DNA of 64,000 bases from Onchidella celtica (taxonomy: Eukaryota > Mollusca > Gastropoda > Systellommatophora > Onchidiidae): the NCBI GenBank assembly GCA_963931925.1, contig OZ007582.1:21513224-21577223 (forward strand), read 5' to 3'. Below the pieces are notes generated by a model, which worked only from the letters and a program-made list of their open reading frames with translations, made no database searches and was not told the DNA's origin. Made by a program: the position numbers and the translations under genes. Of this stretch, positions 1,707-39,518 are shown piece by piece; position 1 is the first letter of the stretch; each line of letters opens with the position of its first letter.

Positions 1707-1880
1707 ATGTCATGGCCTTTGAGATAAATGCCCACTCATTTTCGTCTCCCACACTGACAGGCAAACTGTCGAGTGAGCGGCAGTAGGCAAACTGCTCATC
1801 CATTTTGTCCACCTTGCGCTGAAATCTGTAACAGCTTTTCTTGTAAGCAACCCAGTTCTTGTCGCAATTGGCGGAACCGT
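1707..1880 (-). CDS. Lectin gene exon 10: first half of C-type lectin domain
   Basis: Sense strand is minus. The exon is preceded by an AG acceptor after a pyrimidine-rich stretch and followed by a GTGAGT donor. It enters and leaves in phase 1 and fits exactly to exon 9. It encodes residues about 376-433. The pattern CxxxWxxYxxxCYxF, a later YCRSL cysteine and an acidic ENEWAFI stretch match the first half of a C-type lectin (CTLD) fold of the long form, with an extra N-terminal cysteine pair (residues 381 and 392). The sugar-binding half (WND-type and QPD/EPN-type motifs) would be in later exons outside the window, so carbohydrate specificity and calcium binding cannot be judged. Confidence 0.88.
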
Positions 1881-1970
1881 CTGGAATTTTCAGAAAGGAG
1901 AAAACACAAGTCCCTGTAAAACTGAGTGGCTTTACTAATCAACAAAACATTACGAATACTGAACGGTCTT

Positions 1971-2258
1971 AAGGCCTGTTTACACTGGTAGGTTTTAGGA
2001 ATAGAAAAAAAGGAATGGATGACTGTGTGGGAAGAACTCTCCTGGCTTTCCGTCTTTTGTTCCGATTGCCCCCTTCGAAATGCTGTTTGTTTACACTGGT
2101 CCGTTTTCTGAATGAGAAACGATGCGCATCGTTTGTTTTGGTCATGTTTCGAACGGGGCAATCGGAAAGCAACAGTCTGAAAACTAGGAGAGTTCTTCCC
2201 ACACAGACCCCTATTCCTTTTTTCTATTTCTAAAACCTGCCTGTGTAAACAGGCCTTT
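1971..2258. mobile_element. Palindromic MITE, about 290 bp
   Basis: Long terminal inverted repeats: AGGCCTGTTTACAC near 1971 and its complement GTGTAAACAGGCCT ending near 2256, each continuing inward for over 40 bp. The flanks TTA and TAG suggest a 3-bp target duplication as in PIF/Harbinger elements (inference). It sits in intron 9 of the lectin gene. Open frames on both strands are by-products of the palindrome. Confidence 0.7.
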
Positions 2259-2535
2259 AGCCAGATTGTGAAAATACAAAATGAACATAAAACGAGAAAA
2301 TAAGTCTTAAAATCTCAGTGCAATGATGATAACTGAAGAGAAACTTTTATCTGTCTCTCAACTGAAGTTTGCAATTTATCAATGCAAAAAAAAAATCAAC
2401 GTACTAAACATGGGACAACACACAGAAACACTTTTACAAAGCCACAGAAGTGGTAAGAAAATGTTCAGGTGGAGCGAGACAGATGACGATCTTCAGAGGA
2501 AGAATGTATATTGATGTTTCGGGCGTTAAAATTTC
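2259..2535. other. Unannotated intron 9 spacer
   Basis: About 280 bp between a palindromic MITE and the 35-bp minisatellite. Nothing recognisable. Confidence 0.5.
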
Positions 2536-4869
2536 CTGACATCTTCTAGAACCCCGGCCACACCGAGTTCATGACATCTTCTAGAACCCCGGCCACACCG
2601 AGTTCCTGACATCTTCTAGAACCCCGGCCACACCGAGTTCCTGACATCTTCTAGAACCCCGGCCACACCGAGTTCCTGACATCTTCTAGAACCCCGGCCA
2701 CACCGAGTTCATGACATCTTCTAGAACCCCCGCCACACCGAGTTCCTGACATCTTCTAGAACCCCGGCCACACCGAGTTCATGACATCTTCTAGAACCCC
2801 CGCCACACCGAGTTCCTGACATCTTCTAGAACCCCGGCCACACCGAGTTCCTGACATCTTCTAGAACCCCGGCCACACCGAGTTCATGACATCTTCTAGA
2901 ACCCCTGCCACACCGAGTTCCTGACATCTTCTAGAACCCCGGCCACACCGAGTTCATGACATCTTCTAGAACCCCGGCCACACCGAGTTCATGACATCTT
3001 CTAGAACCCCGGCCACACCGAGTTCATGACATCTTCTAGAACCCCCGCCACACCGAGTTCATGACATCTTCTAGAACCCCGGCCACACCGAGTTCCTGAC
3101 ATCTTCTAGAACCCCGGCCACACCGAGTTCCTGACATCTTCTAGAACCCCGGCCACACCGAGTTCCTGACATCTTCTAGAACCCCGGCCACACCGAGTTC
3201 ATGACATCTTCTAGAACCCCGGCCACACCGAGTTCCTGACATCTTCTAGAACCCCGGCCACACCGAGTTCATGACATCTTCTAGAACCCCGGCCACACCG
3301 AGTTCATGACATCTTCTAGAACCCCGGCCACACCGAGTTCATGACATCTTCTAGAACCCCCGGCCACACCGAGTTCCTGACATCTTCTAGAACCCCGGCC
3401 ACACCGAGTTCATGACATCTTCTAGAACCCCGGCCACACCGAGTTCATGACATCTTCTAGAACCCCGGCCACACCGAGTTCATGACATCTTCTAGAACCC
3501 CCGGCCACACCGAGTTCATGACATCTTCTAGAACCCCGGCCACACCGAGTTCATGACATCTTCTAGAACCCCGGCCACACCGAGTTCATGACATCTTCTA
3601 GAACCCCCGGCCACACCGAGTTCCTGACATCTTCTAGAACCCCGGCCACACCGAGTTCTTGACATCTTCTAGAACCCCGGCCACACCGAGTTCATGACAT
3701 CTTCTAGAACCCCGGCCACACCGAGTTCTTGACATCTTCTAGAACCCCCGGCCACACCGAGTTCATGACATCTTCTAGAACCCCGGCCACACCGAGTTCA
3801 TGACATCTTCTAGAACCCCGGCCACACCGAGTTCATGACATCTTCTAGAACCCCGGCCACACCGAGTTCCTGACATCTTCTAGAACCCCCGGCCACACCG
3901 AGTTCATGACATCTTCTAGAACCCCCGGCCACACCGAGTTCATGACATCTTCTAGAACCCCGGCCACACCGAGTTCCTGACATCTTCTAGAACCCCGGCC
4001 ACACCGAGTTCCTGACATCTTCTAGAACCCCGGCCACACCGAGTTCATGACATCTTCTAGAACCCCGGCCACACCGAGTTCATGACATCTTCTAGAACCC
4101 CGGCCACACCGAGTTCATGACATCTTCTAGAACCCCGGCCACACCGAGTTCATGACATCTTCTAGAACCCCGGCCACACCGAGTTCATGACATCTTCTAG
4201 AACCTCCGGTCACACCGAGTTCCTGACATCTTCTAGAACCCCGGCCACACCGAGTTCATGACATCTTCTAGAACCCCCGGCCACACCGAGTTCATGACAT
4301 CTTCTAGAACCCCCGGCCACACCGAGTTCCTGACATCTTCTAGAACCCCGGCCACACCGAGTTCTTGACATCTTCTAGAACCCCCGGCCACACCGAGTTC
4401 CTGACATCTTCTAGAACCCCCGCCACACCGAGTTCCTGACATCTTCTAGAACCCCGGCCACACCGAGTTCCTGACATCTTCTAGAACCCCGGCCACACCG
4501 AGTTCTTGACATCTTCTAGAACCCCCGGCCACACCGAGTTCCTGACATCTTCTAGAACCCCCGGCCACACCGAGTTCCTGACATCTTCTAGAACCCCCGG
4601 CCACACCGAGTTCTTGACATCTTCTAGAACCCCCGGCCACACCGAGTTCCTGACATCTTCTAGAACCCCCGGCCACACCGAGTTCTTGACATCTTCTAGA
4701 ACCCCCGGCCACACCGAGTTCCTGACATCTTCTAGAACCCCCGGCCACACCGAGTTCTTGACATCTTCTAGAACCCCCGGCCACACCGAGTTCTTGACAT
4801 CTTCTAGAACCCCCGGCCACACCGAGTTCTTGACATCTTCTAGAACCCCCGGCCACACCGAGTTCCTGA
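2536..4869. repeat. 35/36-bp minisatellite, about 66 copies
   Basis: Head-to-tail units beginning GACATCTTCTAGAACCCC and continuing GGCCACACCGAGTTC plus a variable base (C, A or T). Units are 35 bp with four C's or 36 bp with five C's. The left two thirds are mainly 35-mers; from about 4500 to 4860 nearly all are 36-mers, which opens 12-residue repeated frames on both strands. Every unit carries TCTAGA. It lies in intron 9 (between exons at 5697 and 1880). No reason to think it is translated. Confidence 0.97.
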
Positions 4870-5696
4870 CTCTCGGTGTTCGTCACCCATCTTTCTTTTT
4901 TTCTTCTGTCCCCAGGCTCTTCTTTGGGTTTGAACCAGTACAACTGGTTTCTACTGTAGGTGTCTTATTCATTTTGTCAGTACTGCCACTGGTTATGTCG
5001 TATAATTTTAGGCTGTTTGAATTTAGTGTTCATTTCTTTTACATCAAATCCAGCAGAAAGCATTTTCCGCCGTTTTTGCAATTTCCTTATGGGTGTTTCT
5101 GATTCACCTGCCACTTAGATCGAGTTTCTTCAGTAGAGAGTATATTGTTGAACCGACAAATCCCCTTGCTCCTACTCCCACCGCGAAATACACTTGACTT
5201 CATCTCGGCATTCCTTAGATTTCTTAGAAGAAAATTCTGGAAAACGATATTTACTTGATTCAAACATTAAAGCAAGCCTAATGGCCAGACAGCTGGCATG
5301 ACAAAGTCACCAACGAATGGCTGTGGGAACGGACAGAGTAAGAGCCAGTGGACATCCAAATACAAAGGAGAAAGTGTGTGTGTGGGGGGGGGGGGGGGCT
5401 TGGACATACACTCCGAAAACCCCAAACCAGCATCGTTCGCTTGGCCCTCAAATGGAACCCCAAGGCAAACGAAGGCGTCCCAAGACAACACGTCAAAGAT
5501 CAACTGCAAGCAAAACAAAAAATGCTGGAACTCTCGTGGGGCCAGACTGAGGCCGCAGCCCAGGACAGGGCAAGGTGAAGGACCTTGGTGGATGACCTAT
5601 GCCCCCTATGGGTTCAAGGGTTTAATCAAGTCAAGTCAATGGCCAGATTTTCCCTCTCACTTTTGGTCAAAGCCCATGCTATTTCTTTATACTCAC
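4870..5696. other. Intron 9, right part
   Basis: Mixed unique sequence with a G-run at 5386-5398. No exon found. The exon 9 donor is at the right boundary. Confidence 0.5.
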
Positions 5697-5807
5697 CCAG
5701 AAAATTACAGTAAATTTTGGAGCCGTTGGTTAGATAATAGTTCCCATGGTAGAAAACGCCTTCATCGAAGATATCCTCACAGCTGTATACGATAAAATTG
5801 GTATCGT
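5697..5807 (-). CDS. Lectin gene exon 9: two-cysteine motif preceding the CTLD
   Basis: Minus-strand exon of 111 bp, phase 1 in and 1 out, with acceptor TTTCCTACAG and donor GTGAGT. It encodes residues about 339-375. Two cysteines (348 and 372) bracket a segment with the pattern CEDIF...G..Y.L..GSKIYC. This 'C...G.Y.L...iYC' layout resembles the N-terminal strand pair of fibrinogen-like or GON-like modules, but it is too short to be either in full. I do not assign a named domain. Its position, fused in frame directly to the CTLD, suggests a linker module of the lectin head. Confidence 0.85.
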
Positions 5808-6614
5808 CTGTAGGAAAGAAAATATTAACATATATATGATTCTTGGAATTGTTTCACTCACATCACACAAAAACTGATATGCATTCACGGTCCGAAAGTG
5901 CACGGCGGCTGAGCATGCATAATGGCAAAGATTTGTTGGGTTGGTCAGGGTGTCTGAGAAAACACACTGGCAAAGAGTATTAAGTAGTGGCGTAGAGTGG
6001 GCAGTGCCACAGAGGTGGTTGTCTCGGACGCAAAATTTGAAAAGAAGAGAGATTGGTGAAAAAACGTTTTTAAAATAACCCCCCCCCCCCCTGCACACAC
6101 AGACAAACAACACTCAGGCCTACATGAGCAGAAAATCTCAGTGTTCGGACATTCTACACAGTTTTTCAGCATGTCTGGGTAAATAAAGGTTGCCACGTGG
6201 TGACGGTCAACGGATCAAGAGGCATAAAAACTTGCCTTTTGTCCCGGGTGCTGGCAACCCACGTTAGGCCACTGGCTGTTATACCCCCCCCCTCCCCCCC
6301 CCCCCCCAAACAAACAAAAAAATCAAACCTCGTTGGAGAACTAAATATGGATTTAGAACTTCCGACCAAAGACGAAGATAAAGACAAAAATTCTGCAGGA
6401 ACACAAGTTTTGAGCAAACCAATAAGGAGCAGTTTGGAAAAACTTTTTAGCCAGTCAGATTTCAAGCAATATTCTTACACTCTTAACTTAACATTTCTCT
6501 ACTGTTTCTAACGTTGATCTTTGCAGACAAACTTTTTTTTTTTCACTTTACCTTGTTTTAATGGAGCTAGATAAGTGTAAAATAAATAAATGTATCACAT
6601 TTAACACAACTTAC
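5808..6614. other. Intron 8
   Basis: About 807 bp containing C-runs at 6079-6090 and 6285-6306. No coding or named repeat recognised. Confidence 0.6.
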
Positions 6615-6705
6615 CAGTCGAGTAAATCTCACCAGTTGTCGTATTAACTGGGAATTCCTCCAGAACTGTGCAGCGTGTCGATGCTCGGGCTATAAACTCT
6701 GGGAT
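6615..6705 (-). CDS. Lectin gene exon 8: end of WSC-like module 2
   Basis: Minus-strand exon of 91 bp, phase 0 in and 1 out, with acceptor CTCTAG and donor GTAAGT. It encodes residues about 309-338. It has one cysteine (320), placed 15 residues after the CxC of exon 7; in WSC module 1 the corresponding spacing (220 to 235) is also 15. It ends with GEIYST, similar to the VYST end of module 1. The two last WSC cysteines are absent, so this module is degenerate or has a rearranged disulfide pattern. Confidence 0.82.
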
Positions 6706-7379
6706 CTAGAGTGAGAAACAATGAATAGTCGGGTGGATGGGCTCGCTAAGACACATGCCCAGCCAGCAACATCGAGGAATTCCGACACATAGAACCGACG
6801 TCATGTTTTCAATCTTTCATCGCTCCCACGTATAGATTCGCTGGTTACGACATATCGCCGACGTCGGCTTGATGTAGGGAACCCGCCCCTGTGATAATCC
6901 GACCAATCGGATGTAAATCTACGTCGGAATGACGTAGGGTTGCTGGCTGGGTGTTCGGTAATGGTTCTCGTGTTCTTATTGAATTTGTGAACTGTCCCAG
7001 TGCGAACCGTTGGTGAAAGGTTTTCACATCGTTGAACCCACCTGTCATGCGACCACCGAGAGAATCCCAGCAAAGGGGCCATCCATTCCATTAAATTAAT
7101 GTGAGCGCTCGGGTGGGTCAGAGAGAGTGACCCCAACATATAAACAGCGCACTTGGCGGCGGGGGGGGGGGGGAGGGGTGGGTGGGGGGGGGGGAGACTC
7201 TTTGGAGCGCACGTGATGAGGGCGATAATTAACCGATAATGTGGATAACAATGACGCAGGCGACGAAGATGCTGATGATAAGAGTGATGATGATGAGGAT
7301 GATGATGATGCTGAGGACGACGATGATGAGCTGGAGGATGGTGGTGGTGATGACGACGGCAATGAAGAAGAAAGGTAAT
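6706..7379. other. Intron 7 with G-runs and GAT-rich sequence
   Basis: G-homopolymer clusters at 7161-7195 and an imperfect GAT/GAC-rich stretch at 7245-7375 leading into the 51-bp minisatellite. No exon seen. Confidence 0.6.
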
Positions 7380-7870
7380 GATTTATGTATATAGACGATG
7401 ATGATGGCGGTTGTTGGTGGTGGTAGTAATGATTTATGTATATAGACGATGATGATGGCGGTTGTTGGTGGTGGTAGTAATGATTTATGTATAGACGATG
7501 ATGATGGCGGTTGTTGGTGGTGGTAGTAATGATTTATGTATATAGACGATGATGATGGCGGTTGTTGGTGGTGGTAGTAATGATTTATGTATATAGACGA
7601 TGATGATGGCGGTTGTTGGTGGTGGTAGTAATGATTTATGTATATAGACGATGATGATGGCGGTTGTTGGTGGTGGTAGTAATGATTTATGTATATAGAC
7701 GATGATGATGGCGGTTGTTGGTGGTGGTAGTAATGATTTATGTATATAGACGATGATGATGGCGGTTGTTGGTGGTGGTAGTAATGATGTATGTATATAG
7801 ACGATGATGATGGCGGTTGTTGGTGGTGGTAGTAATGATTTATGTATATAGACGATGATGATGATGATGA
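7380..7870. repeat. 51-bp minisatellite, about 9.5 copies
   Basis: Nearly identical units of 51 bp: GATTTATGTATATAGACGAT followed by GATGATGGCGGTTG and TTGGTGGTGGTAGTAAT. One copy lacks two bases (near 7482) and the last expands into (GAT)n. The array ends about 14 bp from the donor of exon 7 (7885), so it occupies the 5' part of intron 7. Confidence 0.97.
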
Positions 7871-7884: not shown

Positions 7885-8030
7885 CGTAGCCATACAGTTG
7901 CACTTGAGCAGTCCAGCTCTATAGAAAGCTAGTTTTTGGTCATCTCCCCTACAGAACTGTATACAGATTGTCGCAGAATACATGATCAGCGCCTGGGTCT
8001 CATCAACGTCGGGCACATCTACACACGGAT
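7885..8030 (-). CDS. Lectin gene exon 7: WSC-like module 2, first part
   Basis: Minus-strand exon of 146 bp, phase 1 in and 0 out, with acceptor TCTCTATAG and donor GTATGT. The T carried over from exon 6 plus the first two bases makes a Tyr codon, so the frame is continuous. It encodes residues about 260-308 with cysteines at 262, 282, 286, 303 and 305. The pattern C-x19-C-x3-C-x16-C-x-C parallels module 1 (C-x24-C-x3-C-x14-C-x-C), so I read it as a second, divergent WSC module. WSC domains occur in secreted and cell-surface proteins and are thought to bind carbohydrate. Confidence 0.85.
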
Positions 8031-10189: not shown

Positions 10190-10325
10190 ACAGTGTTGAA
10201 TACACGGAGTATACTGTGGCATTTCCTCCACAGAAAGAAAGGCCATCGTGACAACGTGTGTTACAGTCATCGTTCGTCAGCTGCTGGGAGGGCTGGTGGT
10301 CGTCAAGGCAATAACACTCGTCTCC
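10190..10325 (-). CDS. Lectin gene exon 6: second half of WSC domain 1
   Basis: Minus-strand exon of 136 bp, phase 0 in and 1 out, with acceptor CCACCCAG (supplied by the neighbouring CCAT array) and donor GTAAGT. It encodes residues about 215-259. Cysteines at 218, 220, 235, 239 and 246 sit in the motifs GDECYC, DDCNTRC and FCGG, ending in VYSVYST. This is the classical C-terminal half of a WSC domain (CxC, C-x3-C, CGG, then VY). Together with exon 5 it gives the full eight-cysteine set. Confidence 0.9.
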
Positions 10326-11032: not shown

Positions 11033-11175
11033 CTGCCTGAATGCAAATAGCTTATTCTGGTTACGACAATGAGATAGGCAGTTTTGTTTGTTGGTGCTGA
11101 TAGAAGGAGATGTCTCTTGGTACGGTGAGGCCAGGGCGCCTTCTTTGTGCAAACATCCTTCGTAATTTCCTGAAG
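11033..11175 (-). CDS. Lectin gene exon 5: first half of WSC domain 1
   Basis: Minus-strand exon of 143 bp, phase 1 in and 0 out, with acceptor TTTGTCTTCAG and donor GTAAGC. It encodes residues about 167-214. The motif NYEGCL followed by NCLSHC and then FAFR matches the N-terminal half of a WSC domain (YxGC ... C-x3-C ... FA). Cysteines are at 174, 199 and 203. An alternative AG six bases further in would keep the frame and remove two residues, so a NAGNAG-like choice is possible. The domain is completed by exon 6. Confidence 0.88.
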
Positions 11176-13441: not shown

Positions 13442-13594
13442 TGAAGCACTTGAATTGTCGGGCAGATGCGGCAGGGGTAGCATATCCCATGGATACATTC
13501 CATATTCCTTGGTCTATACAGGTCACTTTCACTGTCTCCGCAGAGTCTAAGAAATGCGACTTGGGGAAATACTTCCCAGACTTGCATGCGTACA
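13442..13594 (-). CDS. Lectin gene exon 4: second half of CCP domain 2
   Basis: Minus-strand exon of 153 bp, phase 1 in and 1 out, with acceptor GCATCTAG next to a CCAT array and donor GTAAGT. It encodes residues about 116-166. It begins VYACKSG and carries TVKVTC and GIWN, matching the second half of a sushi/CCP module (C..G ... VTC ... G.W ... C). Cysteines are at 119, 141 and 165. The G carried from exon 3 restores a Val codon. The segment between Trp147 and the last Cys (17 residues) is longer than usual for CCP domains. Confidence 0.88.
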
Positions 13595-15078: not shown

Positions 15079-15171
15079 CTGCCACTTGTCCATAGTCAGA
15101 CTCTCCTAGGCCAGCGTTCTCGTATGTGATAACTGTTCCCGTGCCGGGCTCTGGCGATCCACAGTCGATTA
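15079..15171 (-). CDS. Lectin gene exon 3: first half of CCP domain 2
   Basis: Minus-strand exon of 93 bp, phase 1 in and 1 out, with acceptor GTCCATCAG and donor GTATCG. It encodes residues about 85-115. It begins [12 protein letters not shown] and ends SDYGQVA, the typical opening of a sushi/CCP module (C.SP ... YG..V). Its first cysteine is residue 88. Splitting of a CCP module by a phase-1 intron between the first and second cysteines occurs in other CCP genes. Exon 4 completes the four-cysteine set (88, 119, 141, 165). Confidence 0.88.
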
Positions 15172-15530: not shown

Positions 15531-15716
15531 CATTACAAAGACGTATGTCTGGACTCCAGGTCCCGTCCACTTGACAATTGGAGGTCAAGGCCGTTTGTTC
15601 CGGTTGTATGACGTAACCAGCATTGCACGTGATGGTTACAGAACTTCCATTCTGACGGAGTGGATCACTGTACGTGATCACAGCATTGGTGTCGGCAACC
15701 TCTGGACAAGCAACGG
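15531..15716 (-). CDS. Lectin gene exon 2: complete CCP (sushi) domain 1
   Basis: Minus-strand exon of 186 bp, phase 1 in and 1 out, with acceptor CTCTCCCCAG and donor GTTAGT. It encodes residues about 23-84. Cysteines at 26, 53, 70 and 83 and the motifs [10 protein letters not shown] and GTWSP form a textbook CCP module (CP ... VTC..GY ... C ... G.W ... C). Such modules mediate protein or glycan binding in complement-like and adhesion proteins. Joined to exon 1 the frame is continuous (a carried G gives an Ala codon), placing the domain immediately after the signal peptide. No other exon is required between them. Confidence 0.93.
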
Positions 15717-21248: not shown

Positions 21249-21461
21249 TGTTTGGGTTCGTATTGTATTGATTTAGTGAACCAGACCATCAGGTACAAGA
21301 CAATGTTAATTCAACACAACAGACTCCACGTGTAGCCATTTCATAACTTCCTGTATTCTCTTCTGTCGCTCTTTTACAATGAAGTCACAGACAGTCATAT
21401 TAATAATAATCTAGAGTAAGTCTAAAATCCTAAACAATGTATTTAATATGATACCAGAACA
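21249..21461 (-). repeat. 3' LTR of the intact gypsy element
   Basis: On the plus strand it starts TGTTTGGGTTCG and ends ACCAGAACA. Same sequence as 26273-26485. A 5-bp target duplication CATAC lies immediately to the left. Confidence 0.95.
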
Positions 21462-22027
21462 TCTCCCTTCTTTTAGAGATTTAAAAGATTTTAAATTAAA
21501 GTGTCCTTTCAACTTATGTTGTAATAGTCCAACTTATGTTTCCATCAACGTTCTTTGGGGTGAATTTTAGTTTTGTAAATTTTCGGGTAAGTCCATAAAT
21601 ATTGTTTTTGTTCTGGAAGTAAAAACTATCTACTAATGTAATATTCCATACACACACACTTTCGTTCCATTAACTAATTTATGAACTAACAATTAAGTTA
21701 ATGTAAAAGTACTAAAAGTCATGATCAACTTAATTGTCCTTGATTTCTGGATATGTCATGCCATATCACAATGGATAGTTGCTTGAAATTAGTGATTTAA
21801 TTATTATGTCGTTAAATATCAACAGTAAATTGTTCGAACACTTGACATGTTAACTGAACTTAAAACTAAAATGAACAGTAACTTAAACTAAGTAAGTATG
21901 AACTACTGTATGAATAAGGTAGAGACTTCCTGCCTCTACATCATGGGAGGGTATTATTATGACCCTTGCTTTATCCCATGATTACTATTACACAACACTT
22001 CTAGCTTGGATTGAAGATGGAAGATGA

Positions 22028-25000
22028 CTAGTTCGACCTTCTCATCTCTTCCTCCCTGAATCTGGCTGGCTTGTTAGCAACATAGCCTCGAGCCATACGA
22101 GTGACAGGTCTATTTGTAGACACTGTTTCTGGAGGGGATTTGACGACTCTAGAATTTGAACTAGGTGTTGCAGGAATATCTTGGGTTTGTTCGTTATCTT
22201 GCAGCACATCATCTGGAGGATCTGGGCTTGGATCTTGATCAGGAAACGAAGACGGTACTGCTTGAAGGTGTTTCCGGTTTCTGCGCAGCACCCGGTCAGG
22301 TGTTTTCACCAAATATGTTCGGTGATCTGGATTTGTTGCAATGACAGTTCCTGGTCCGGTCCACTTGTTTTCTTCATCTGTCTTGAGAAGAACTTTCTGT
22401 CCAGACTCCAGTTGTTTTAGTTGTCTTGCGCCATGTCTGTTGTCGTAATTCCTTTTGTATCTTGTTTTCGTTTCTTTTGCTCTGTCTTGGATGTCTTGGT
22501 TGTTGACTTGTCGAGGGTAAAGGTTCCTCGGCAATGTGGGAACTTTTGTTCTCAGTTTTCGTCCCATCAGGGCGACTGCTGGGCTCACTCCAGTCGTTGA
22601 GAGAATTGTGTTTCTGTAGTTCATCAGAGCTACCTCTAATGAATTCTGTTTCAAAAGTTTCTTTGCAACCTTCACAGCACTTTCGGCTTGTCCGTTGGAC
22701 TGAGGAAAGTGTGGACTACTGGTCACATGTTGAAAGTCAAAGTCTTTAGCAAAGAGTTTGAATTCTCTGCACTGAAATTGTGGTCCATTGTCACTAGCCA
22801 GAGTTTCACAAATTCCGTGAGTTGCAAAAATGTTTGTTAGCTTCTGGATGATAGCTTGAGATGTTGTAGAATTCAGTTTTACTACTTCGATCCATTTTGA
22901 GTAGTAATCGACTACGACTAAGTATTCATTTTTCCCATGTGTAGCGAGATCTACTGCAATTTTCTGCCATGGCCTCTCAGGTAGGTCAGTTGGTATTAAT
23001 GGTTCATTCCGCTGAGAGGGTCTATTTTCTCTGCAGGAGAGACAGTTCTGAATCATGTTCTTGATATCTCTCGTGATGCCGGGCCACCACACGGATGCGT
23101 CAGCATTCTGTCTGCACTTTTCGATTCCTTGGTGAGTCTCATGTAGTTTAGAGAGAATGTAATCTCTTTGAGAATGAGGGACTACTATTCGGTTGTTGAA
23201 AACTAACAATCCATTCACAATAGACAGTTCTCCTTGCACTTGTTGAAAATTTTGTAGTGTTTTAGGTACCTCTTTTGGCCAGCCATCCATCACAAAATGC
23301 ATCACTTTCTGTATGTCTGTATCTTTCTTGCTTTCTTCCCTCAGATTTTCTAATCGTGAAGCAGTGACGGGCCAAAAGCTTTCCAGAGATTCCACATAAG
23401 CCTCTACATTCTGTCCTGTTTCTTTATCTTGAGTTGTATGGTAATTCATTGGACTTCTAGAGAGAGCATCAGCAATGACGAGCTCTTTCCCTGGCACATG
23501 AATGACATTGTAGTTGAATCTTAAAAGTCTCATCAGTAGTCTTTGGCATCTGGCAGGGCATTTATCTAAATCTTTTTTCTTCATCAATGGAACCAATGGT
23601 TTATGGTCTGTTTGTAATTCAAAGTTATCAAGACCAATTAGGTATTTTCCAAATTTTTCACATGCATAGACCGAAGCCAAACATTCTTTCTCTATTTGGG
23701 CATAACCTTTTTCTGTTTCTGTCAATGTTCTAGATGCAAATGCTATGGGCTGAAGTTTGCTTCCTTTCATCTGTATTAACACTGCTCCCAACCCAAAACT
23801 GCTGCTGTCTGCACTGACAATTGTTTCACAGTTAATGTCAAAGAATCCCAAGGTTGTAGCTTCTGCTATTTTCTTCTTTGCAAGGTTGAATGCATTTTTC
23901 TGCTCTGCTCCCCACTGATATTTTTCTGACTTTTTCATCAAATCAGTCAAAGGTTTCAAAATTGTAGCTAGTGATGGAACAAATTTACTCATGTAATTGA
24001 GTAACCCACACACAGTGCGTAGCTCTGTCAATGATGTTGGCGGCTGTAGTTTCTGTATGGCCTCCACCTTTTCAGGATTTGGTTTTATTCCCTCCTTGTT
24101 TATGAGATGTCCAAAGTATTTCACCTCTTTCTGTCTGAAACAACATTTTTCTTTATTTAATTTCAGTCCTGATTGTTCTATTCTCTCCAAAACAGCTTCT
24201 AGTTTTCTGTCGTGATCCTCTATGTCTTTCCCATAGATGATGGTATCATCCATAATGACTTCACAACCTGGCAGGCCTTTTAAAGTCTCTTTCATTTTTG
24301 ATTGGAATACTTCAGGACCTAATGATATTCCCATGGGTACTCTCTGGAAACAGTATTTTCCAAACGGTGTGATGAAAGTTGTGAGCATGCTGCTGTCTTC
24401 CTCGAGGGGAATTTGGAAGAAACCAGAGGTTGCGTCTAGTGTAGAAAAGACTGTTGCGCCATTGAATTTGGGAGCGATATCCTCTAAGTTTGGAAGCATG
24501 CAGTAGTTTCTTTTCACTGAAAGATTTAACTTCTTGAAATCCACACAGATCCGAACTTGCTTGTTTGGTTTTACTACTGGGACCATTGGGGCACACCATT
24601 CTGTAGGTTCATTAACTTTTCTTATTACCCCATTTCTTTCCATCCTTTCCAGTTCTTCTTTTACTTTACTTTCTAAAGGGAATGGTACTCTTCTTGCTGT
24701 TGCAACATTATATGGTTCAGCATCTTTGTTTAATGTTATTTTTACTGGTTCAGTTTTCAACAGTCCGGCAGCACCAAAAACTTGTTTTCTTAGTTCAGGT
24801 TTTAATTTTTCTGTGCGTTCTATGTCTTCTATGTGCCTGATTAAGCCTAGAGCTTCGGCCACATTTCTGCTGAGTAAATTGCTACCTTCTTTGTTGTTTA
24901 AGACCACAACTCTGAATTCAAAGGTCTTTTCCTTTCTCTTTGTCTTCGCTGTGAACTCTCCTTTCACTTGAATATTTCCTCCTGGTGAGGTTAGATTCAG

Positions 25001-26014
25001 TTTACATTGATGCAATGTCGGTTTGGTTCTCAACCTTTGAAATGTTTTCTGAGTAATACAAGTAATGTCAGCTCCTGTGTCCACTTTGAAAGGAACATTT
25101 GTATTCTGAATGTTGAGCATCGTGCTCCATGGTGGAGATTTGTCTGAAATGACTGTATCTATTGAAAATGTTTGTTCAAATTCTTCAGTCACCTCTCTAA
25201 TGTTTGACCTGCACATTTTGGCAAAATGATTTGCTTTATGACACTTGTGGCAGGTTCTCCCTTTTGCTGGGCATTGGTCACGTGGGTGACCTTTCCCACA
25301 CCTGCGACAATTTTGATACTGAACACTGGTAGGTCTGTGATGATTATGATTATAAGGTTTCTTATGTGGTTTGTGACCTTGTTGTGGTGCTGTTGCCCCT
25401 TTGTAATGCTTTTCATTCTTTTTAAATCCACCTGATTTTACTCTACTCATCTGAGTTTGCTGTGGCTGTGCTGTGTTATTTGTCAGCTTTTTTAAGAATT
25501 CTTCAGTCATTTCCAGACTTCTCGCGAACTGTAACAATCCTGCTACGTCAAGCGTTGATGTAGTGAGTCCTTTTTCTCTCACTTTCTTCGATGAGCAACC
25601 TGATATGAGTTGCGATTTTATTTCATCCTCCGCATTCGGAAAATTGCACTGAGACGCAAGTTGGCGGAGTTCGGAGTAAAAATCGTCAATTCGTTGAAAT
25701 TCTTTCTGCCGCTTGTGTCTGAATTCATATTTCAGGATCTCCAAATTTGATCTTGGATTAAAATGATCTGTTAGAGCTTTAATGAGGTCCTTATAAGATT
25801 CATCTGAGGCTTGTATGGTATTGATAGTGGGTAATGATTCTGCAATATCATTTAGATCTGGACCACCATAAGTGAGGGTAAGAGCGTATCTTCGTTTGCT
25901 GCTAGCTATCTCGTATCCATCAAAGATGTGCTCCAGCCTGCGGACCCATCTAGGCCATCGAACTGCGGCACCTTCAGTGTGGCAATCGAATTGTTCATAC
26001 GGTGGGAGATTCAT
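22028..26014 (-). CDS. Gag-Pol polyprotein of Ty3/gypsy retrotransposon
   Basis: 1328 residues in one frame without stop or frameshift. Order seen: Gag-like region (about 1-200); two CCHC-type zinc knuckles (about 235-268, CRRCGKGH..C and CHKCHKANHFAKMC); aspartic protease with DTGADITC (about 310); reverse transcriptase with the palm motif IMDD near 590 instead of the usual Y/F-x-DD; RNase H with DSSSFGLGAVL and TDHKPL (about 735-805); integrase HHCC finger (about 958-995) and core with VDLATHGK, SDNGPQF and PQSNGQAE (about 1022-1105). This is the standard protease-RT-RNase H-integrase order of Ty3/gypsy. Gag and Pol are fused, so no ribosomal frameshift is needed. I think a Mag/SURL-type lineage likely, but a tree is needed. 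Function: self-copying of the element. Confidence 0.96.
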   Translation of the reverse strand: MNLPPYEQFDCHTEGAAVRWPRWVRRLEHIFDGYEIASSKRRYALTLTYGGPDLNDIAESLPTINTIQASDESYKDLIKALTDHFNPRSNLEILKYEFRHKRQKEFQRIDDFYSELRQLASQCNFPNAEDEIKSQLISGCSSKKVREKGLTTSTLDVAGLLQFARSLEMTEEFLKKLTNNTAQPQQTQMSRVKSGGFKKNEKHYKGATAPQQGHKPHKKPYNHNHHRPTSVQYQNCRRCGKGHPRDQCPAKGRTCHKCHKANHFAKMCRSNIREVTEEFEQTFSIDTVISDKSPPWSTMLNIQNTNVPFKVDTGADITCITQKTFQRLRTKPTLHQCKLNLTSPGGNIQVKGEFTAKTKRKEKTFEFRVVVLNNKEGSNLLSRNVAEALGLIRHIEDIERTEKLKPELRKQVFGAAGLLKTEPVKITLNKDAEPYNVATARRVPFPLESKVKEELERMERNGVIRKVNEPTEWCAPMVPVVKPNKQVRICVDFKKLNLSVKRNYCMLPNLEDIAPKFNGATVFSTLDATSGFFQIPLEEDSSMLTTFITPFGKYCFQRVPMGISLGPEVFQSKMKETLKGLPGCEVIMDDTIIYGKDIEDHDRKLEAVLERIEQSGLKLNKEKCCFRQKEVKYFGHLINKEGIKPNPEKVEAIQKLQPPTSLTELRTVCGLLNYMSKFVPSLATILKPLTDLMKKSEKYQWGAEQKNAFNLAKKKIAEATTLGFFDINCETIVSADSSSFGLGAVLIQMKGSKLQPIAFASRTLTETEKGYAQIEKECLASVYACEKFGKYLIGLDNFELQTDHKPLVPLMKKKDLDKCPARCQRLLMRLLRFNYNVIHVPGKELVIADALSRSPMNYHTTQDKETGQNVEAYVESLESFWPVTASRLENLREESKKDTDIQKVMHFVMDGWPKEVPKTLQNFQQVQGELSIVNGLLVFNNRIVVPHSQRDYILSKLHETHQGIEKCRQNADASVWWPGITRDIKNMIQNCLSCRENRPSQRNEPLIPTDLPERPWQKIAVDLATHGKNEYLVVVDYYSKWIEVVKLNSTTSQAIIQKLTNIFATHGICETLASDNGPQFQCREFKLFAKDFDFQHVTSSPHFPQSNGQAESAVKVAKKLLKQNSLEVALMNYRNTILSTTGVSPAVALMGRKLRTKVPTLPRNLYPRQVNNQDIQDRAKETKTRYKRNYDNRHGARQLKQLESGQKVLLKTDEENKWTGPGTVIATNPDHRTYLVKTPDRVLRRNRKHLQAVPSSFPDQDPSPDPPDDVLQDNEQTQDIPATPSSNSRVVKSPPETVSTNRPVTRMARGYVANKPARFREEEMRRSN

Positions 26015-26272
26015 GATGGACTCTGTGGTGTAGATCTAGTAGATTTGGCTCAGGTCTGAACTCATAGACTCTGCACTGTGTCGATCTATTCTTGCTGTCA
26101 GGTCTGATCTCATAGACTCTGCTCTATCGATAATAGGTCTTGGTTCATGGGCTTGGCTTAGGGGCCTTTTTTTTTTTTTTTTTTTTTTTTTCAGATACGT
26201 CTAGATTCTAGATCTGGTAATGCCAGCTACTTTAACTGACAACATGTTTGTCAGATCCCACTTCTGACACCA

Positions 26273-26485
26273 TGTTTGGGTTCGTATTGTATTGATTTAG
26301 TGAACCAGACCATCAGGTACAAGACAATGTTAATTCAACACAACAGACTCCACGTGTAGCCATTTCATAACTTCCTGTATTCTCTTCTGTCGCTCTTTTA
26401 CAATGAAGTCACAGACAGTCATATTAATAATAATCTAGAGTAAGTCTAAAATCCTAAACAATGTATTTAATATGATACCAGAACA
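26273..26485 (-). repeat. 5' LTR of the intact gypsy element
   Basis: Identical to 21249-21461. On the minus strand it would carry the promoter and is followed by the primer-binding-like site TGGTGTCAGAAGTGGGAT ending near 26255. Confidence 0.95.
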
Positions 26486-32203: not shown

Positions 32204-32208
32204 CACAA

Positions 32209-33431: not shown

Positions 33432-33432
33432 T

Positions 33433-34348: not shown

Positions 34349-36985
34349 ATGGCGGAACTCCAACAACTAATGAAGTTGGGTAAGGAACTTGGCCTGGAGG
34401 GAGAGGAGCTACGCGGCTGGATTAAAGAACAGCAGGCGGATTTGCGCGATGAGCGTGCTAAGGATAGAGAGCGAGAAAAAGAGGCTCAAGAGCGACAGAG
34501 AGAACAGGAAAGAGAGGCTAAGGATAAGGAACAGGAAAGGGAGTTTAAGCAACAGGAAAGAGAGGCTAAGGAACGGGAGCAGGAGAGGGAGTTAAAGTTA
34601 AAGGAGATAGAGGCACAAGTAAAGATTGCGGAGTTAGAACTCAAGAAGAATACGCCAGCGGAAACGGCTGAGCGGCAGGTACCCAATAAAGGTGGCGTTA
34701 GGATTAAGCTCCCTACGTTCGACGACCGGAAGGACGACATAGACGCCTTCCTTTACAGGTTCGAACTGAACGCACAATTGCAATGGGGGGAAAATAAGGA
34801 ATTATGGGCCACGTACCTGGCGTCGCTATTGCAGGGGCGAGCGTTAACATACTTTAAAGAGCTACAGCGCGAAGACGTACAAGATTACGATAAGCTGAAG
34901 GCTTTGCTGCTTCGCCGATTTGCGCGTACCGAGGAATACTTCCGGGAGCAGTTTAGGCGAGCACGTGCAGATACCAGGGAGGACTTTGCTGCCTTCGTCG
35001 CGAGACTAACGGAGTATTTCGCGAACTGGATAGACTTGGCGCATGTGGGCACGGATTTTGCTAAACTGAAAGACTTAATGATCCGTGACCAGCTGTACGC
35101 GTCGTGCCACAAAGATCTGGTGGCTTTCCTGAAAGAGAACGAACCCGCGACGGTGCAGGAAGCGTCTAAGTTGGCGGAGGCATACCGTACGGCACATCCG
35201 TCCAAACCAGTCGCCAGGGCGTACGTCCAAGATGCTGGGTACGTCGCCGTTGTCGAGGGGTCGCCGGCAGGACTTGGGGACAGGTCGCGTCAGCGTGGTG
35301 CCTATAGCGGGCAAGCCCAGGGGCAGCGTAGGGGCTATCACCAATCACCGGCATATGGATCCGGTAAGTTTGACCGAGCAGGAGGGCTAGGTCGCGGTAA
35401 TGGCCGGGGGCGAGTTGTGACCTTTGCCGATGACCGACGGCATAGGGACTCTAGTTCCGGTCGCGATGGGTCACGGGGACCCAGGCCTAGTGCAGCACAG
35501 GGAGCGGAGTGTTGGACTTGCGGACGCGTGGGCCACTTTTCACGCGAGTGTAGGGCCGCGAAGTGTTGGAACTGCGGTAGAGCGGATCACATCAGCGTGA
35601 ACTGCCCGGCAGGTAGGATAGCGGCGAACGTGGACAGTAGCTCCAGTCCATGTTCCCCAAATAAATTTCATCATGCGGCTGCGTGTGTTACATCGGACAA
35701 CGGAGGCGGACAGTATTCTAAGTGTCCCAGTTGTGAGAAGTTATTATCTTCCGGTGTTTTACCTTGTGGGAGAAAGATCCCCGTTATAAATTCATGTCAT
35801 ACAGGAGGTGGTCTTAGGGTTTATCCGGGGTTTGTTGGGGACGAACCGGTCTCGGTTTTACGAGATACAGGATCTACCGTTGTGGGAGTGCATAGGGACT
35901 GCATTCGGGATTCACAGCTTACAGGTGAGACTGTCCCGTGCATCCAATTTTCGGGGGCCATTGAGAAATTACCCATGGCAAAAATAATGATAGATACACC
36001 TTTCCTTAGCGGGGAAGTCGAAGCAGTCGTTGGTTGTTTTCCAGGCGCCCAGCTCATCATTGGGAATGTATCACGGGTAGTTTCCCCTTCCGATGAGAAC
36101 GTGCAAGCATGGTCGCAATCAAAAGGTATTGACTTTTGCGCCGCGGTCGAAACACGCCGACGGGTAGCCGATAAAGACAAGATTAGACCTTTGGCTACGC
36201 CAGCGGTCAACCTAGACATCACGCCAGAGCGCTTGGCGAGATTACAAAGGGAGGACCCATCATTAAACCCATGTTTTGGGGAAGCGCGAACCGAGAAAAC
36301 GAGGAGATATAAGAACGGGTCATCTTCTTTTTTTGTTCAGGCGGGCATTCTGTTCCGTATGTACGTCACAGTGGCTTCCGTTCAAAAGCAGGTCGTCGTG
36401 CCACGGTCGTTAATTGCTACAGTATTGCGTCTGGCCCATGATGTTCCACTAGCGGGTCATATGGGAAGTGCTAGAACCAAGCAGAGAGTTCTGAAAGATT
36501 TTTATTGGCCGTCAGTATACAGAGATGTACGTTTATATTGTAAGACGTGCAGTGCGTGCCAAAAGACGACGCATAAGAGTCGTACACCCCAGGCTCCTCT
36601 TCAAAAGATCCCCACGGTTTCGGAACCGGTTAAAAAGGTTTCGATAGACCTTGTTGATTTAAGAGAAAGATTATCTTCAGCGCGCACTATAGCAGAAGAA
36701 GCGTCTAGTATCGCTTCAGCAAGAGCAAGGAACTATAAAGATAGAGGGTCCAAACTGAGAATTTTTAAGCCAGGAGACAAGGTTCTGTTGTTGTTACCTA
36801 CGGACCATAATAAGTTATTGATGACATGGAAAGGTCCGTATGTTATTGAGCAAATTGTTTCGAAGGTAGATTACGCTATCCACATTGATGGATCAGTAAA
36901 GGTTTTCCATGTTAATATGCTGCAGAGGTTTCATGAGAGACCAGAGTATCTGTATTCTCGTACTAGTGTTGAAGGACATACCTAA
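34349..36985 (+). CDS. Gag-protease-partial integrase of the Gmr1-like element
   Basis: 878 residues. Residues 20-110 are a highly charged E/R/K-rich segment, probably coiled coil. Residues about 115-300 are a retrotransposon Gag core. Two zinc knuckles are at about 388-420 (CWTCGRVGHFSREC, CWNCGRADHISVNC). Aspartic protease has RDTGSTVVG near 504. An integrase HHCC finger (LAHDVPLAGH ... CKTCSACQ) is at about 697-737. SIDLVD near 765 is the start of the integrase core with its first Asp, but the sequence then jumps to a C-terminal integrase domain (PGDKVLLLLPTDHNKL, KVFHVNMLQRF, about 805-865). The rest of the core with the other two acidic residues is absent. A short out-of-context tail ends the frame. 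Gag and protease may still work; integrase cannot. Confidence 0.92.
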   Translation: MAELQQLMKLGKELGLEGEELRGWIKEQQADLRDERAKDREREKEAQERQREQEREAKDKEQEREFKQQEREAKEREQERELKLKEIEAQVKIAELELKKNTPAETAERQVPNKGGVRIKLPTFDDRKDDIDAFLYRFELNAQLQWGENKELWATYLASLLQGRALTYFKELQREDVQDYDKLKALLLRRFARTEEYFREQFRRARADTREDFAAFVARLTEYFANWIDLAHVGTDFAKLKDLMIRDQLYASCHKDLVAFLKENEPATVQEASKLAEAYRTAHPSKPVARAYVQDAGYVAVVEGSPAGLGDRSRQRGAYSGQAQGQRRGYHQSPAYGSGKFDRAGGLGRGNGRGRVVTFADDRRHRDSSSGRDGSRGPRPSAAQGAECWTCGRVGHFSRECRAAKCWNCGRADHISVNCPAGRIAANVDSSSSPCSPNKFHHAAACVTSDNGGGQYSKCPSCEKLLSSGVLPCGRKIPVINSCHTGGGLRVYPGFVGDEPVSVLRDTGSTVVGVHRDCIRDSQLTGETVPCIQFSGAIEKLPMAKIMIDTPFLSGEVEAVVGCFPGAQLIIGNVSRVVSPSDENVQAWSQSKGIDFCAAVETRRRVADKDKIRPLATPAVNLDITPERLARLQREDPSLNPCFGEARTEKTRRYKNGSSSFFVQAGILFRMYVTVASVQKQVVVPRSLIATVLRLAHDVPLAGHMGSARTKQRVLKDFYWPSVYRDVRLYCKTCSACQKTTHKSRTPQAPLQKIPTVSEPVKKVSIDLVDLRERLSSARTIAEEASSIASARARNYKDRGSKLRIFKPGDKVLLLLPTDHNKLLMTWKGPYVIEQIVSKVDYAIHIDGSVKVFHVNMLQRFHERPEYLYSRTSVEGHT

Positions 36986-37796
36986 TGTCGTGTCATTCTT
37001 TGACGATATAGCATGCCATACGTCGACATGGTCTGATCATATTCAGACACTAACAGTAATTTTTCAACGATTACGTCATTTTGGGTTAACTGCTAAACCC
37101 GCAAAGATGGATTTGGCATGTCCAGAGATAATATTCTTAGGACATATTGTGGGTAGAGGTGTTCAGAGACCTGAAGAAACAAAAATTGACAAGTTAGTAG
37201 GGTTGCAAATCCCTAAAACAAAGAAACAAGTCAGAAGCTTAGTGGGGATTTTAAATTATTACAGAAAGTTCATTCCAAATTTCTCCTCCTTGTCATCTTC
37301 TCTTACTGACCTTACTAAGAAGGGACAACCCGATAAGGTCCAGTGGACGTCTGAATGTCAGACAGCATTTGATAATTTGGTGACAGCATTATCATCGTCA
37401 CCCATTCTGATATTGCCCGATTTTCGATCTAATTTTATCCTCAGAACGGATGCGTCGGACTCTGGTGTCGGCGCTTGTCTTCTACAGGAGAAGAACGAAT
37501 GTCTCCATCCTGTATGTTATGTCAGTAGGAAGTTATTGCAGAGAGAAAGAAAGTATTCTGTGATAGAGCGTGAGTGTCTTGCCATTGTCTGGTCCGTCCA
37601 GAAACTAGGACGTTATCTCATGGGACGAGAATTTTGTATCCAGACAGACCACAAGCCGCTGACATTTTTGTCGAAGAATCGTTCGTCCAGCCCACGCTTG
37701 TCTAGATGGGCATTGGCTTTGCAGCCGTATACCTTCGTTATTCAACCAATTCCAGGAACCAGCAATCATATCGCCGACTACCTTAGTCGAGCCTAG
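36975..37796 (+). pseudogene. C-terminal half of RT plus RNase H of the Gmr1-like element
   Basis: A frame shifted relative to the Gag frame begins within the reverse transcriptase palm at VVSFFDDIACH (the catalytic x-x-DD box near 36998) and continues through FLGHIVG, LVGILNYYRKFIPNF and the RNase H motifs TDASDSGVGACL, ERECLAIVW and TDHKPLTFL, ending IADYLSRA. All RT before the palm box (fingers and the first catalytic Asp) is missing. It overlaps the upstream frame by a few dozen bases, where the deletion joint must lie (about 36950-36995). There is no start codon that makes sense for this domain. Confidence 0.9.
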
Positions 37797-38152
37797 GGCA
37801 AGATTTCAGGAGCTTATACATCGGAGGACAGGAACATTGACAGGATCTGTGTGAATAAGTCGACTTTAAAATATTGACATTATAAATATGATATGAAGAA
37901 TGGTTGATAGGTTGAATGGTTTTTGATTCGGTATTAAGTATTGGGGTTAGTTGGCTATTCATGATGTGACACATATATGCATATTGCAGGCCATATTGAT
38001 CCCCATATTTCCCCCTGATTTCGGTATTTTATATACTAGGGGAACTGCTAGGTCAGTTTTTTGAGTGTAGGTATTGCTCACGCTCACTCGTTGACAGTCA
38101 TCTTGATGCGATTTGAAATTAATTGCATTAATTTTTTTGGGGTGGGGGATGA
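37797..38152 (+). other. 3' non-coding part and polypurine tract of the Gmr1-like element
   Basis: No frame. Ends TTTTTTTGGGGTGGGGGATGA directly before the LTR; the G-rich stretch (about 38139-38152) is the likely plus-strand primer. Confidence 0.7.
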
Positions 38153-39375
38153 TGTCACGAGTGGAGTGAGCGATAGTTAATAATTACGGGGGGAAAGGAG
38201 GAGAGTAAAATTAACGCACGGAGACAGGGAAGAAAAGTCGTGCATGTCATGAGTGGGGGGTCTGAAGGAGGCGAAAGCGCTGTATAACTATCACTGCAAG
38301 TTAGAAGGTCCTAGGGATCGGACCTGTGAATAAAAGCCCATCGGGCGGACATAAAGGGGAAGCAGTCGAGAAGACTAGTGAGAGTCTTTCCAGTTATGAC
38401 TGGTATGTAGAACGTTGATTGATTATTATGATTGATGTATTATATTATATTCGTCTATTACCATGATGTGAATAAGTATATGTGAGGAATGTGGAAGTCC
38501 TTGATATTGGATATAGCAATGTGCGCCATGAGCGATAGATGAAAGTGAGTTCATGGATTTGTAGCGCGAGTGAGTAGTGTGTACTCCGATGGAGGTGTGT
38601 TACCGTAAGATGTGTGGTGAGTGAAAGGTGAACTAGTGTGTGTACGCTTCATGGGTTGTAAGGAGAGGTGGAGTGAATAGAAATGGTAGGGTATTATACC
38701 AATGTAATGTTATTCTTGTAGGTGTCGGGGACGGGCCGCAGAGCCACCTCGATGAGCACAGGGGATAGGCCAGCATAGGGCCGGAGGCCATACATGGGCC
38801 AGAAGTGAGACTGTCGGGGCAGGACAGTAGAGGCACATAAAGTCGTGGCAGTCAGGCCACGGACAGGGACGTAGATATGAGAGTGAATGAGATACTATAT
38901 TGTTGCCATGTTGATAGGCTAGTGAACTGATACTATGTTGTTGCCATGTTGATAGGCTAGTGAACTGATACTATGTTGTTGCCATGTTGATGGCTATGGA
39001 AATAATAATGTGTTATTGCCCTGCTGAGGTGCTAGGGGAGTGCTAAGGTGTATGACAATAGGGAGGGGATATTGCGAGACTGCGGTGCCAGTGAATCATT
39101 AATGTACTATTAAGACCCTGAGGGGAGAGGCTGAGGCCGAAGTGCCTTTAGGAGTAACTACCGGATTGTGGATCCGAGGGAGCGTGTGTGTGAGAATAAG
39201 GCCGTGGTACGGCAGTCATTTCCATAATATAATGTATGTAATTGCGCTATTATATGTATAATTATGTTTAATAAATGTGTGAGTCTGATGGATTGTTCTG
39301 TTAAGTGTTAACTTGTTTGTTCGTGAGTGTTGTCCTGTCATACTTATTACATCTCCCAGTCTGGGATTTGTGACA
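38153..39375 (+). repeat. 3' LTR of the Gmr1-like element
   Basis: Copy of 32209-33431 with about two base differences. It is followed by the duplicated target CACAA. Its end is 77 bp from the coding end of lectin gene exon 1. Confidence 0.95.
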
Positions 39376-39451
39376 CACAACTCAATGTTTTCTCTCTTTA
39401 GCTTTATAATTAGGCTCCGCGCCCCTAACAATATTCATTAATGAGACTTAC

Positions 39452-39518
39452 CTTGACACGACCCAAAGGCTGTGTAGACGACCAGCATAAACAGAGCGTA
39501 ATGACAAATTCCAGTCAT
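39452..39518 (-). CDS. Lectin gene exon 1: start codon and signal peptide
   Basis: Minus-strand ATG at 39516-39518 opens 22 codons (MTGICHYALFMLVVYTAFGS then CQ), a typical short signal peptide with hydrophobic core and small residues before the expected cut. The exon ends with a GTAAGT donor in phase 1, and the carried G completes an Ala codon with exon 2 at 15716. The sequence just before the ATG (TTCTTTCTCATCAG) looks like a splice acceptor, so an untranslated exon may lie further right. Between this exon and exon 2 is a 23.7-kb intron with two retrotransposons. Assigning it to this gene rests on phase, strand and the missing signal peptide elsewhere; cDNA would settle it. Confidence 0.72.

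What the first reader, a model, noticed from the sequence alone, without database searches (positions are those of the whole stretch)
1707..39518. A ten-exon secreted lectin-like gene with signal peptide, two CCP, WSC plus WSC-like modules and a CTLD
The exons were found by splice sites and cysteine patterns, and every junction preserves a single frame, which is very unlikely by chance. CCP, WSC and C-type lectin modules are each known in extracellular recognition proteins; I do not know a described protein with this order. It could be a molluscan immune or adhesion receptor.
Basis: partly seen in the sequence, partly recalled or inferred. Interest (0 to 1): 0.78.

Follow-up and report, generated by a model that had tools for sequence, protein, structure and literature searches.

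The report
Large secreted mosaic lectin-like gene
The ten exons are real, but they are only the first part of a roughly 104-kb gene, very likely of a mollusc, for a large, apparently secreted mosaic protein built from repeated sugar-binding-type modules; its function is not known and has to be tested.

Summary
All ten exons reproduce on the minus strand (39518 to 1707, 1300 nt, 433 residues, every junction in frame). They are not chance: Pfam accepts WSC across a splice (E 1.3e-10) and Sushi, CCP1-CCP2 align to C1r over three exons, and the first exon is the only phase-1 signal-peptide-like exon with a strong donor in 78 kb of minus strand.

The model is incomplete. The CTLD exon 1880-1707 is only a first half. 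The gene runs about 64 kb beyond the left edge to a PAN exon with a stop codon and AATAAA. I list 34 segments, 5,126 nt, some tentative, with one unresolved phase break. Order: signal peptide, 2 CCP, WSC, WSC-like, repeated WSC / small Cys hairpin / CTLD units, WSC, 4 CCP, PAN.

The hairpin has no Pfam match; its predicted fold resembles the N-terminal stub of fibrinogen-like domains, at low Z.

The genome is very likely molluscan. No close paralogue was found. Bivalve C-type-lectin proteins with WSC or sushi domains are in print (PMC10140915); my listings showed no report of this order. Function is inference.

The parts
39452..39518 (-). First coding exon: ATG and signal-peptide-like sequence, phase 0 to 1
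   Evidence: only phase-1 candidate with donor of 4.5 or more in 78 kb of minus strand (donor 8.6); no second copy reported in the genome. TCATCAG just before the ATG looks like an acceptor, so an upstream 5'UTR exon is likely
15531..15716 (-). CCP1 (Sushi), phase 1-1
   Evidence: Pfam Sushi 33.0 and 33.6 bits, cut-off 20.7
15079..15171 (-). CCP2, first half, phase 1-1
   Evidence: pair CCP1-CCP2 aligns to C1r; donor weak
13442..13594 (-). CCP2, second half, phase 1-1
   Evidence: acceptor weak
11033..11175 (-). WSC module 1, first half, phase 1-0
   Evidence: joined with next exon: Pfam WSC 41.8 bits, model 1-82 of 82
10190..10325 (-). WSC module 1, second half, phase 0-1
7885..8030 (-). WSC-like module, first half, phase 1-0
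   Evidence: keeps six cysteines shared by all six WSC rows; 11.2 bits, 1 of 1998 shuffles as high; no Pfam call
6615..6705 (-). WSC-like module, second half, phase 0-1
5697..5807 (-). X module: two-cysteine hairpin of about 36 residues, first of five copies (four support each other); fibrinogen-stub-like predicted fold, phase 1-1
   Evidence: (0 of 1789 shuffles as high)
1707..1880 (-). First half of a C-type lectin-like domain, phase 1-1; its continuation was not found and would lie in a stretch that reads N left of the window
   Evidence: PDB matches to NKG2-D, NKG2-A, KLRF1 and ASGPR within residues 374-431, E 3e-4 to 0.09

Best explanation
This is the 5' part of a real gene, very likely molluscan, of about 104 kb on the minus strand (window 39518 down to -64221, that is C16:21449002-21552741). 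It encodes a large mosaic protein; the segments found so far give about 1,700 residues.

Shown by sequence: signal peptide (by heuristic); two CCP; WSC; WSC-like; then units of WSC, a small two-cysteine hairpin and a C-type-lectin-like domain (four with at least part of a CTLD, a fifth with WSC and hairpin only); a last WSC; four CCP; a terminal PAN domain with stop codon and polyA signal.

Inferred: the protein is secreted and works as a multivalent extracellular recognition protein. The repeated WSC and CTLD-like modules offer several weak glycan-binding sites in a row. The hairpin, which looks like the N-terminal stub of a fibrinogen-like domain, caps or joins neighbouring modules. The CCP blocks at both ends act as spacers and protein-docking arms, and PAN as a further binding end. 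It would bind glycan-covered surfaces (microbes, mucus, egg coat or matrix) and cross-link them.
For: Exon model and phases. Counts of generic exon-like places 13 / 0 / 0 / 3 (thresholds not blind). Signal exon and no second phase-1 one between 15716 and -64300, which argues for one gene. Pfam: WSC1 41.8, WSC3 30.8, WSC4 30.4, WSC5 39.4 bits, cut-off 27.8; Sushi on CCP1 and three stretches of the CCP3-6 block; PAN_1 21.9 against 21.4; Lectin_C E 0.0011 over model 8-107 of 107 on CTLD2. The WSC profile finds Kremen-1 at 8.1e-9 and chain 7pz2_A (a fungal Wsc, recalled) at 1.9e-5 in the PDB. X copies: four of five support each other against shuffles. X fold: the 20 entries listed are 17 fibrinogen-like domains and 3 procollagen C-propeptides. 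Stop and AATAAA. Genome very likely molluscan.
Confidence: 0.6

Rival explanations
1. The same gene, but a structural extracellular-matrix, egg-coat, mucus or shell-matrix protein, whose CCP, WSC, CTLD and PAN modules bind host partners, with no role in recognising foreign glycans.
For: CTLDs look degenerate; the gene looks single-copy, unlike the clustered CTLD places elsewhere in the genome.
Against: Repeated WSC modules, called a carbohydrate-binding domain in PMC10140915 (passage); CCP closest in the PDB to complement proteases.
Confidence: 0.3
2. Two or more neighbouring genes (a CCP-WSC-CTLD gene and a WSC-CCP-PAN gene) rather than one.
For: An 18-kb gap without recognised exons between -29849 and -48152, and a stretch next to the window that reads N.
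Against: No second phase-1 signal-peptide-like exon between 15716 and -64300 at donor limits 4.5 or 3.0 (N stretches cannot be judged and other phases were not scanned); same module types and phase 1-1 symmetry on both sides of the gap.
Confidence: 0.12
3. A membrane receptor, with a transmembrane exon that I missed or an alternative 3' end.
For: I did not scan systematically for transmembrane exons, and part of the gene is unread.
Against: Terminal PAN exon with acceptor score 6.5, in-frame stop and AATAAA about 30 bases on.
Confidence: 0.1
4. Polycystin-1-like gene (WSC and CTLD are both polycystin-1 modules, recalled).
For: Shared module types (recalled; the polycystin titles were seen in the listing only).
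Against: No PKD_channel match listed on C16 nearer than 29.9 Mb (window 21.5 Mb); the genome has PKD_channel matches elsewhere, one group on C2 about 91 kb from another WSC pair. Terminal PAN exon and stop here.
Confidence: 0.02
5. Chance open frames or a decayed pseudogene.
For: Some weak splice scores; degenerate CTLDs; no transcript.
Against: Counts 13 / 0 / 0 / 3 (thresholds not blind); full Pfam WSC only after joining two exons; leave-one-out support among WSC and X copies.
Confidence: 0.03

Closest known systems
Bivalve-specific CTL-domain-containing proteins (CTLDcps, category C of PMC10140915)
   Same: Molluscan, uncharacterised, C-type lectin domain combined with further domains; WSC and sushi are among those named (passages and section 2.4 read).
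   Different: The text I read gives no order of modules that I could compare and does not say that WSC and sushi occur in one protein (figures and supplements not seen); nothing there about a WSC / fibrinogen-stub / CTLD repeat or a PAN end; the class of the present genome was not established.
Polycystin-1 (PKD1)
   Same: WSC and C-type lectin domain in one extracellular chain (recalled).
   Different: No polycystin channel match nearby; here CCP at both ends, a hairpin module and a PAN end.
Kremen-1 and fungal Wsc sensors
   Same: WSC module; PDB profile hits 8.1e-9 and 1.9e-5 (that 7pz2_A is a fungal Wsc is recalled).
   Different: WSC in another context (Kremen: kringle and CUB, recalled); no CTLD.
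C1r / MASP CCP pairs
   Same: CCP1-CCP2 of this gene align to the C1r CCP pair, E 6e-8.
   Different: No CUB, EGF or protease modules recognised here; resemblance is of the CCP module only.
Fibrinogen-like domains (ficolins, tachylectin-5A, tenascins)
   Different: The rest of the fibrinogen-like domain is not seen; no Pfam match and no significant sequence match.

Membership tests
WSC domain (PF01822) | Score above Pfam's cut-off of 27.8 bits over most of the model | tested here: met
   WSC1 41.8, WSC3 30.8 and WSC4 30.4, WSC5 39.4; WSC6 24.4 is below and the WSC-like module has no match; WSC2 is half a module and was not scanned
Sushi / CCP (PF00084) | Score above 20.7 bits | tested here: met
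   CCP1 33.0 and 33.6, 27.5 in the 433 aa; CCP3-6 block 55.9 in three stretches; CCP2 alone not called
C-type lectin domain (PF00059) | Score above 22.6 bits | tested here: not met
   CTLD2 20.1 bits over 8-107 of 107, E 0.0011; CTLD4 18.2 bits with an exon missing; CTLD3 no match; the half domain in the window matches CTLD structures weakly, E 3e-4 to 0.09. So called CTLD-like, not a tested member
C-type lectin, calcium-dependent sugar binding | EPN or QPD and WND motifs (recalled) | tested here: inconclusive
   Read by eye on CTLD2 only: EPS, no WND; CTLD1 second half not found
PAN_1 (PF00024) | Score above 21.4 bits | tested here: met
   21.9 bits, model 7-72 of 76, marginal
Fibrinogen-like domain (X module) | Recognisable fibrinogen C-terminal domain by profile | tested here: not met
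   three of five X copies scanned, no Pfam family up to E 5
Fibrinogen-like domain (X module) | N-terminal stub fold | tested here: inconclusive
Polycystin-1 | Polycystin channel region encoded next to the ectodomain | tested here: not met
   none of 25 PKD_channel matches lies near C16:21.5 Mb
Secreted protein | Signal peptide | tested here: met
   hydropathy and donor heuristic only, no trained predictor
Secreted protein | No transmembrane segment | not tested
   not scanned systematically; the terminal exon read has none by eye

The most novel reading that the evidence does not exclude
A so far unnamed recognition unit, WSC followed by an orphan fibrinogen-domain stub and a CTLD, has been duplicated four or five times inside one secreted molluscan protein flanked by complement-type CCP blocks. 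It would be a soluble multi-site pattern-recognition string that evolved without tandem gene expansion, unlike the clustered lectins of the same genome.
Probability: 0.3. Interest if true: 0.6.

Novelty: new variant of a known kind. Interest (0 to 1): 0.42.

Why it matters
Extracellular mosaic proteins are built by shuffling phase 1-1 exons (general knowledge). Here one gene shows a repeated three-module unit with WSC (rare in animal proteins, recalled), an orphan fibrinogen-like stub and a degenerate CTLD. If transcribed as modelled, it gives a single-copy gene in which glycan recognition by repeat number can be tested directly, and it shows that a gene call made within one window of a large genome can miss most of a gene.

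Tried and rejected
Polycystin-1 idea: rejected after (no channel domain nearby; a WSC pair and channel exons sit about 91 kb apart on C2 instead).

A sixth X copy at -37198 and a WSC half at -37822: rejected. X6 has no usable acceptor and scores 1.7 bits with 145 of 1712 shuffles as high; the -37822 stretch was dropped by eye. X6 was still one of the six rows of alignment A1 and a seed; A3 and leave it out of the profile.

CTLD5 between -29850 and -48100, a middle exon of CTLD4, and an extra exon before PAN: nothing at my thresholds. CTLD3 a and c exons are tentative; no Pfam match for CTLD3.

X against the PDB by sequence: FGL1 at E 0.51 and 0.6 and 1.3, not significant and outranked by unrelated chains; both profiles gave no fibrinogen-like chain.

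Rfam and tRNA scans of the window: nothing. The sigma-70 scan has no meaning for an animal gene. In one search protein 4 is an artificial join of the window's CTLD half to the second half of CTLD2; it gave only a weak UL45 match and is not used.

Papers: searches were search listings; three were long and I saw 15 of 87, 8 of 9 and 15 of 226. PMC10140915 was read in passages and section 2.4, PMC4581086 in two passages. None that I saw describes this order of modules; figures and supplements were not read.
Full report
Setting. The window is C16:21513224-21577223 of a 1.14-Gb genome in 43 contigs. Window coordinate x is C16 position 21513223 + x; negative numbers below lie left of the window. The haemocyanin domain PF14830 occurs 33 times, all on C7 in three clusters. 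That family is molluscan (recalled), so the genome is very likely that of a mollusc; its class was not tested.

The observation. On the minus strand the exons are 39518-39452, 15716-15531, 15171-15079, 13594-13442, 11175-11033, 10325-10190, 8030-7885, 6705-6615, 5807-5697 and 1880-1707: 1300 nt, 433 residues, all phases consistent. Pfam on the product gives WSC 41.8 bits over the full model, which exists only after two exons are joined, and Sushi 27.5 bits. The CCP1-CCP2 stretch, from three exons, aligns to C1r, E 6e-8, over residues 21-149. The last exon resembles the first half of NK-type lectin domains, E 3e-4 to 0.09. Lectin_C itself is not called there.

Is it chance? I listed every stretch with an acceptor score of at least 1.5, a donor score of at least 3, phase 1 in and out, and at least two cysteines, using no domain knowledge. 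On the minus strand from 16000 to -64300 there are 13 such places (16 raw). The plus strand of the same stretch has none; 184.7 kb further left (15 kb of it N) has none on the minus strand and three on the plus strand. I set the thresholds after seeing many of these exons, and 2 of the 13 lie in the window. The first coding exon is the only ATG exon with a hydrophobic core and a phase-1 donor of at least 4.5 in 78 kb of minus strand upstream of CCP1; the plus strand of that span has none. At a donor limit of 3.0 one other candidate appears, at 69364; elsewhere in the 344 kb the same scan gives none in the gene region, two at limit 3.0 further left, and one at limit 4.5 on the plus strand. The sequence just before the ATG looks like an acceptor, so a non-coding exon upstream is likely.

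The gene goes on. Flanks of 250 kb left and 30 kb right were fetched; parts of them, one next to the window, read N. Downstream on the minus strand I find, in order (final table):
- WSC2 second half -5807 to -5917; X2 -6511 to -6633; CTLD2 -7466 to -7648 and -9937 to -10140.
- WSC3 -11746 to -11850 and -14006 to -14158; X3 -15054 to -15161; CTLD3 -16539 to -16703 (tentative), -18779 to -18875 and -20344 to -20489 (tentative).
- WSC4 -22138 to -22325 and -23331 to -23442; X4 -24163 to -24264; CTLD4 -24829 to -25043 and -27108 to -27200, with a middle exon missing.
- WSC5 -28648 to -28923; X5 -29733 to -29849.
- WSC6 -48152 to -48286 and -50035 to -50178; CCP3 -50746 to -50955; CCP4 -52466 to -52660; CCP5 -54075 to -54266; CCP6 -55343 to -55531.
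- PAN -63959 to -64221, ending in the stop codon, with AATAAA at -64248.
The table holds 34 segments, 5,126 nt: 33 have GT after them and the last ends in a stop; 33 have AG before them and the first begins with ATG. One phase break remains, at CTLD4. A first version had four breaks; three went when I moved four segment ends, and three of the donors then used are weak (WSC2b -0.1, WSC4a -0.4, WSC4b 0.9); the CTLD3a donor is weak too (-0.2). Phase across the two unread gaps is not a test.

Pfam on these parts: WSC3 30.8, WSC4 30.4, WSC5 39.4, WSC6 24.4 (cut-off 27.8); CCP block 55.9 bits in three stretches; PAN_1 21.9 (cut-off 21.4); CTLD2 Lectin_C 20.1 bits over model 8-107, below the cut-off of 22.6; CTLD4 18.2; CTLD3 none. 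Profiles built from my own modules, run on six frames of the 344 kb, put every match better than E 0.1 on the minus strand inside the gene. This is circular, because those places were the seeds, one of them (X6) a stretch that I later rejected; what it shows is that nothing else in the region comes close. The leave-one-out tests are not circular: five WSC modules score 20.2 to 44.4 bits with 0 of about 2000 shuffles as high each; the WSC-like module 11.2 bits with 1 of 1998; X1, X3, X4 and X5 12.1 to 23.3 bits with 0 of 1685 to 1789; X2 fails, -2.5 bits with 1527 of 1545 as high.

One gene or several. No second phase-1 signal-peptide-like exon lies between 15716 and -64300 (N stretches cannot be judged). 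Searches of the whole genome with the 433-residue product, with a CTLD2-WSC3-X3 piece and with the CCP3-6-PAN piece find this locus. Beyond it they list only matches in the CCP part of the query (C5, within a 2133-residue open frame, best 1.2e-16; C3 and C1) and one match to the WSC part at E 0.108. The WSC family search lists five other places, all on other chromosomes. So the gene looks single-copy, in a genome whose Lectin_C search scored 150 of 476 candidates.

Function. Shown: module types, order, a signal peptide by heuristic, an end with stop and polyA signal. Inferred: secretion, multivalent glycan or protein binding, cross-linking. The degenerate CTLDs make WSC the likelier glycan binder. 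I could not test binding, expression or conservation.

Prior art. PMC10140915 states that the unique architectures of bivalve CTL-domain proteins include WSC and sushi domains, and that the bivalve-specific ones are uncharacterised. My nine searches (three of them cut lists) showed no title or abstract start that describes this order. I rate it a new variant of a known kind, moderately interesting.

Noticed in passing
window 21249-26485: Ty3/gypsy-type LTR retrotransposon inside intron 1: 213-nt direct repeats 100% identical, and a 1335-residue uninterrupted frame with gag, protease, RT, RNase H and integrase matches on the minus strand; looks young.
   Followed up: partly
window 32208 to about 38970 or beyond: Second LTR element in intron 1, reading frames on the plus strand, with 300-nt direct repeats 100% identical. 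Domain order is odd: SCAN-like stretch and zinc knuckle, then Integrase_H2C2, and only then the end of RT and RNase H in another frame, so it looks rearranged.
   Followed up: partly
window 43490-45349, minus strand: 620-residue uninterrupted transposase frame (Pfam DDE_Tnp_1_7, E 6.9e-90; piggyBac-type by recall).
   Followed up: no
window 57090-60284, minus strand: 1065-residue LINE-like frame with endonuclease and reverse transcriptase; a fragment of nearly the same sequence lies about 95 kb left of the window.
   Followed up: no
window 2533-4870, 7375-7863, 40187-41338: Minisatellites: 35-bp unit x 66, 51-bp x 9.6, 27-bp x 43; the first two lie in introns of this gene.
   Followed up: no
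G000:C7 at 0.27-0.37, 2.51-2.55 and 59.31-59.41 Mb: Three clusters of haemocyanin beta-sandwich domain matches.
   Followed up: no
G000:C5:48998000-49009000: A 2133-residue open frame with many CCP-type matches.
   Followed up: no
G000:C2:78558969-78560109 and 78650932-78654437: A WSC pair with polycystin-channel matches about 91 kb on, same strand: possibly a WSC-bearing polycystin-1 homologue.
   Followed up: no
G000:C3:53.5-53.7, C11:33.7-34.0, C13:39.0-39.2, C15:32.3-33.1, C18:26.6-26.9 Mb: Clusters of Lectin_C matches, most of them nearly full-length in one open frame, in contrast to the split CTLD exons of this gene.
   Followed up: no
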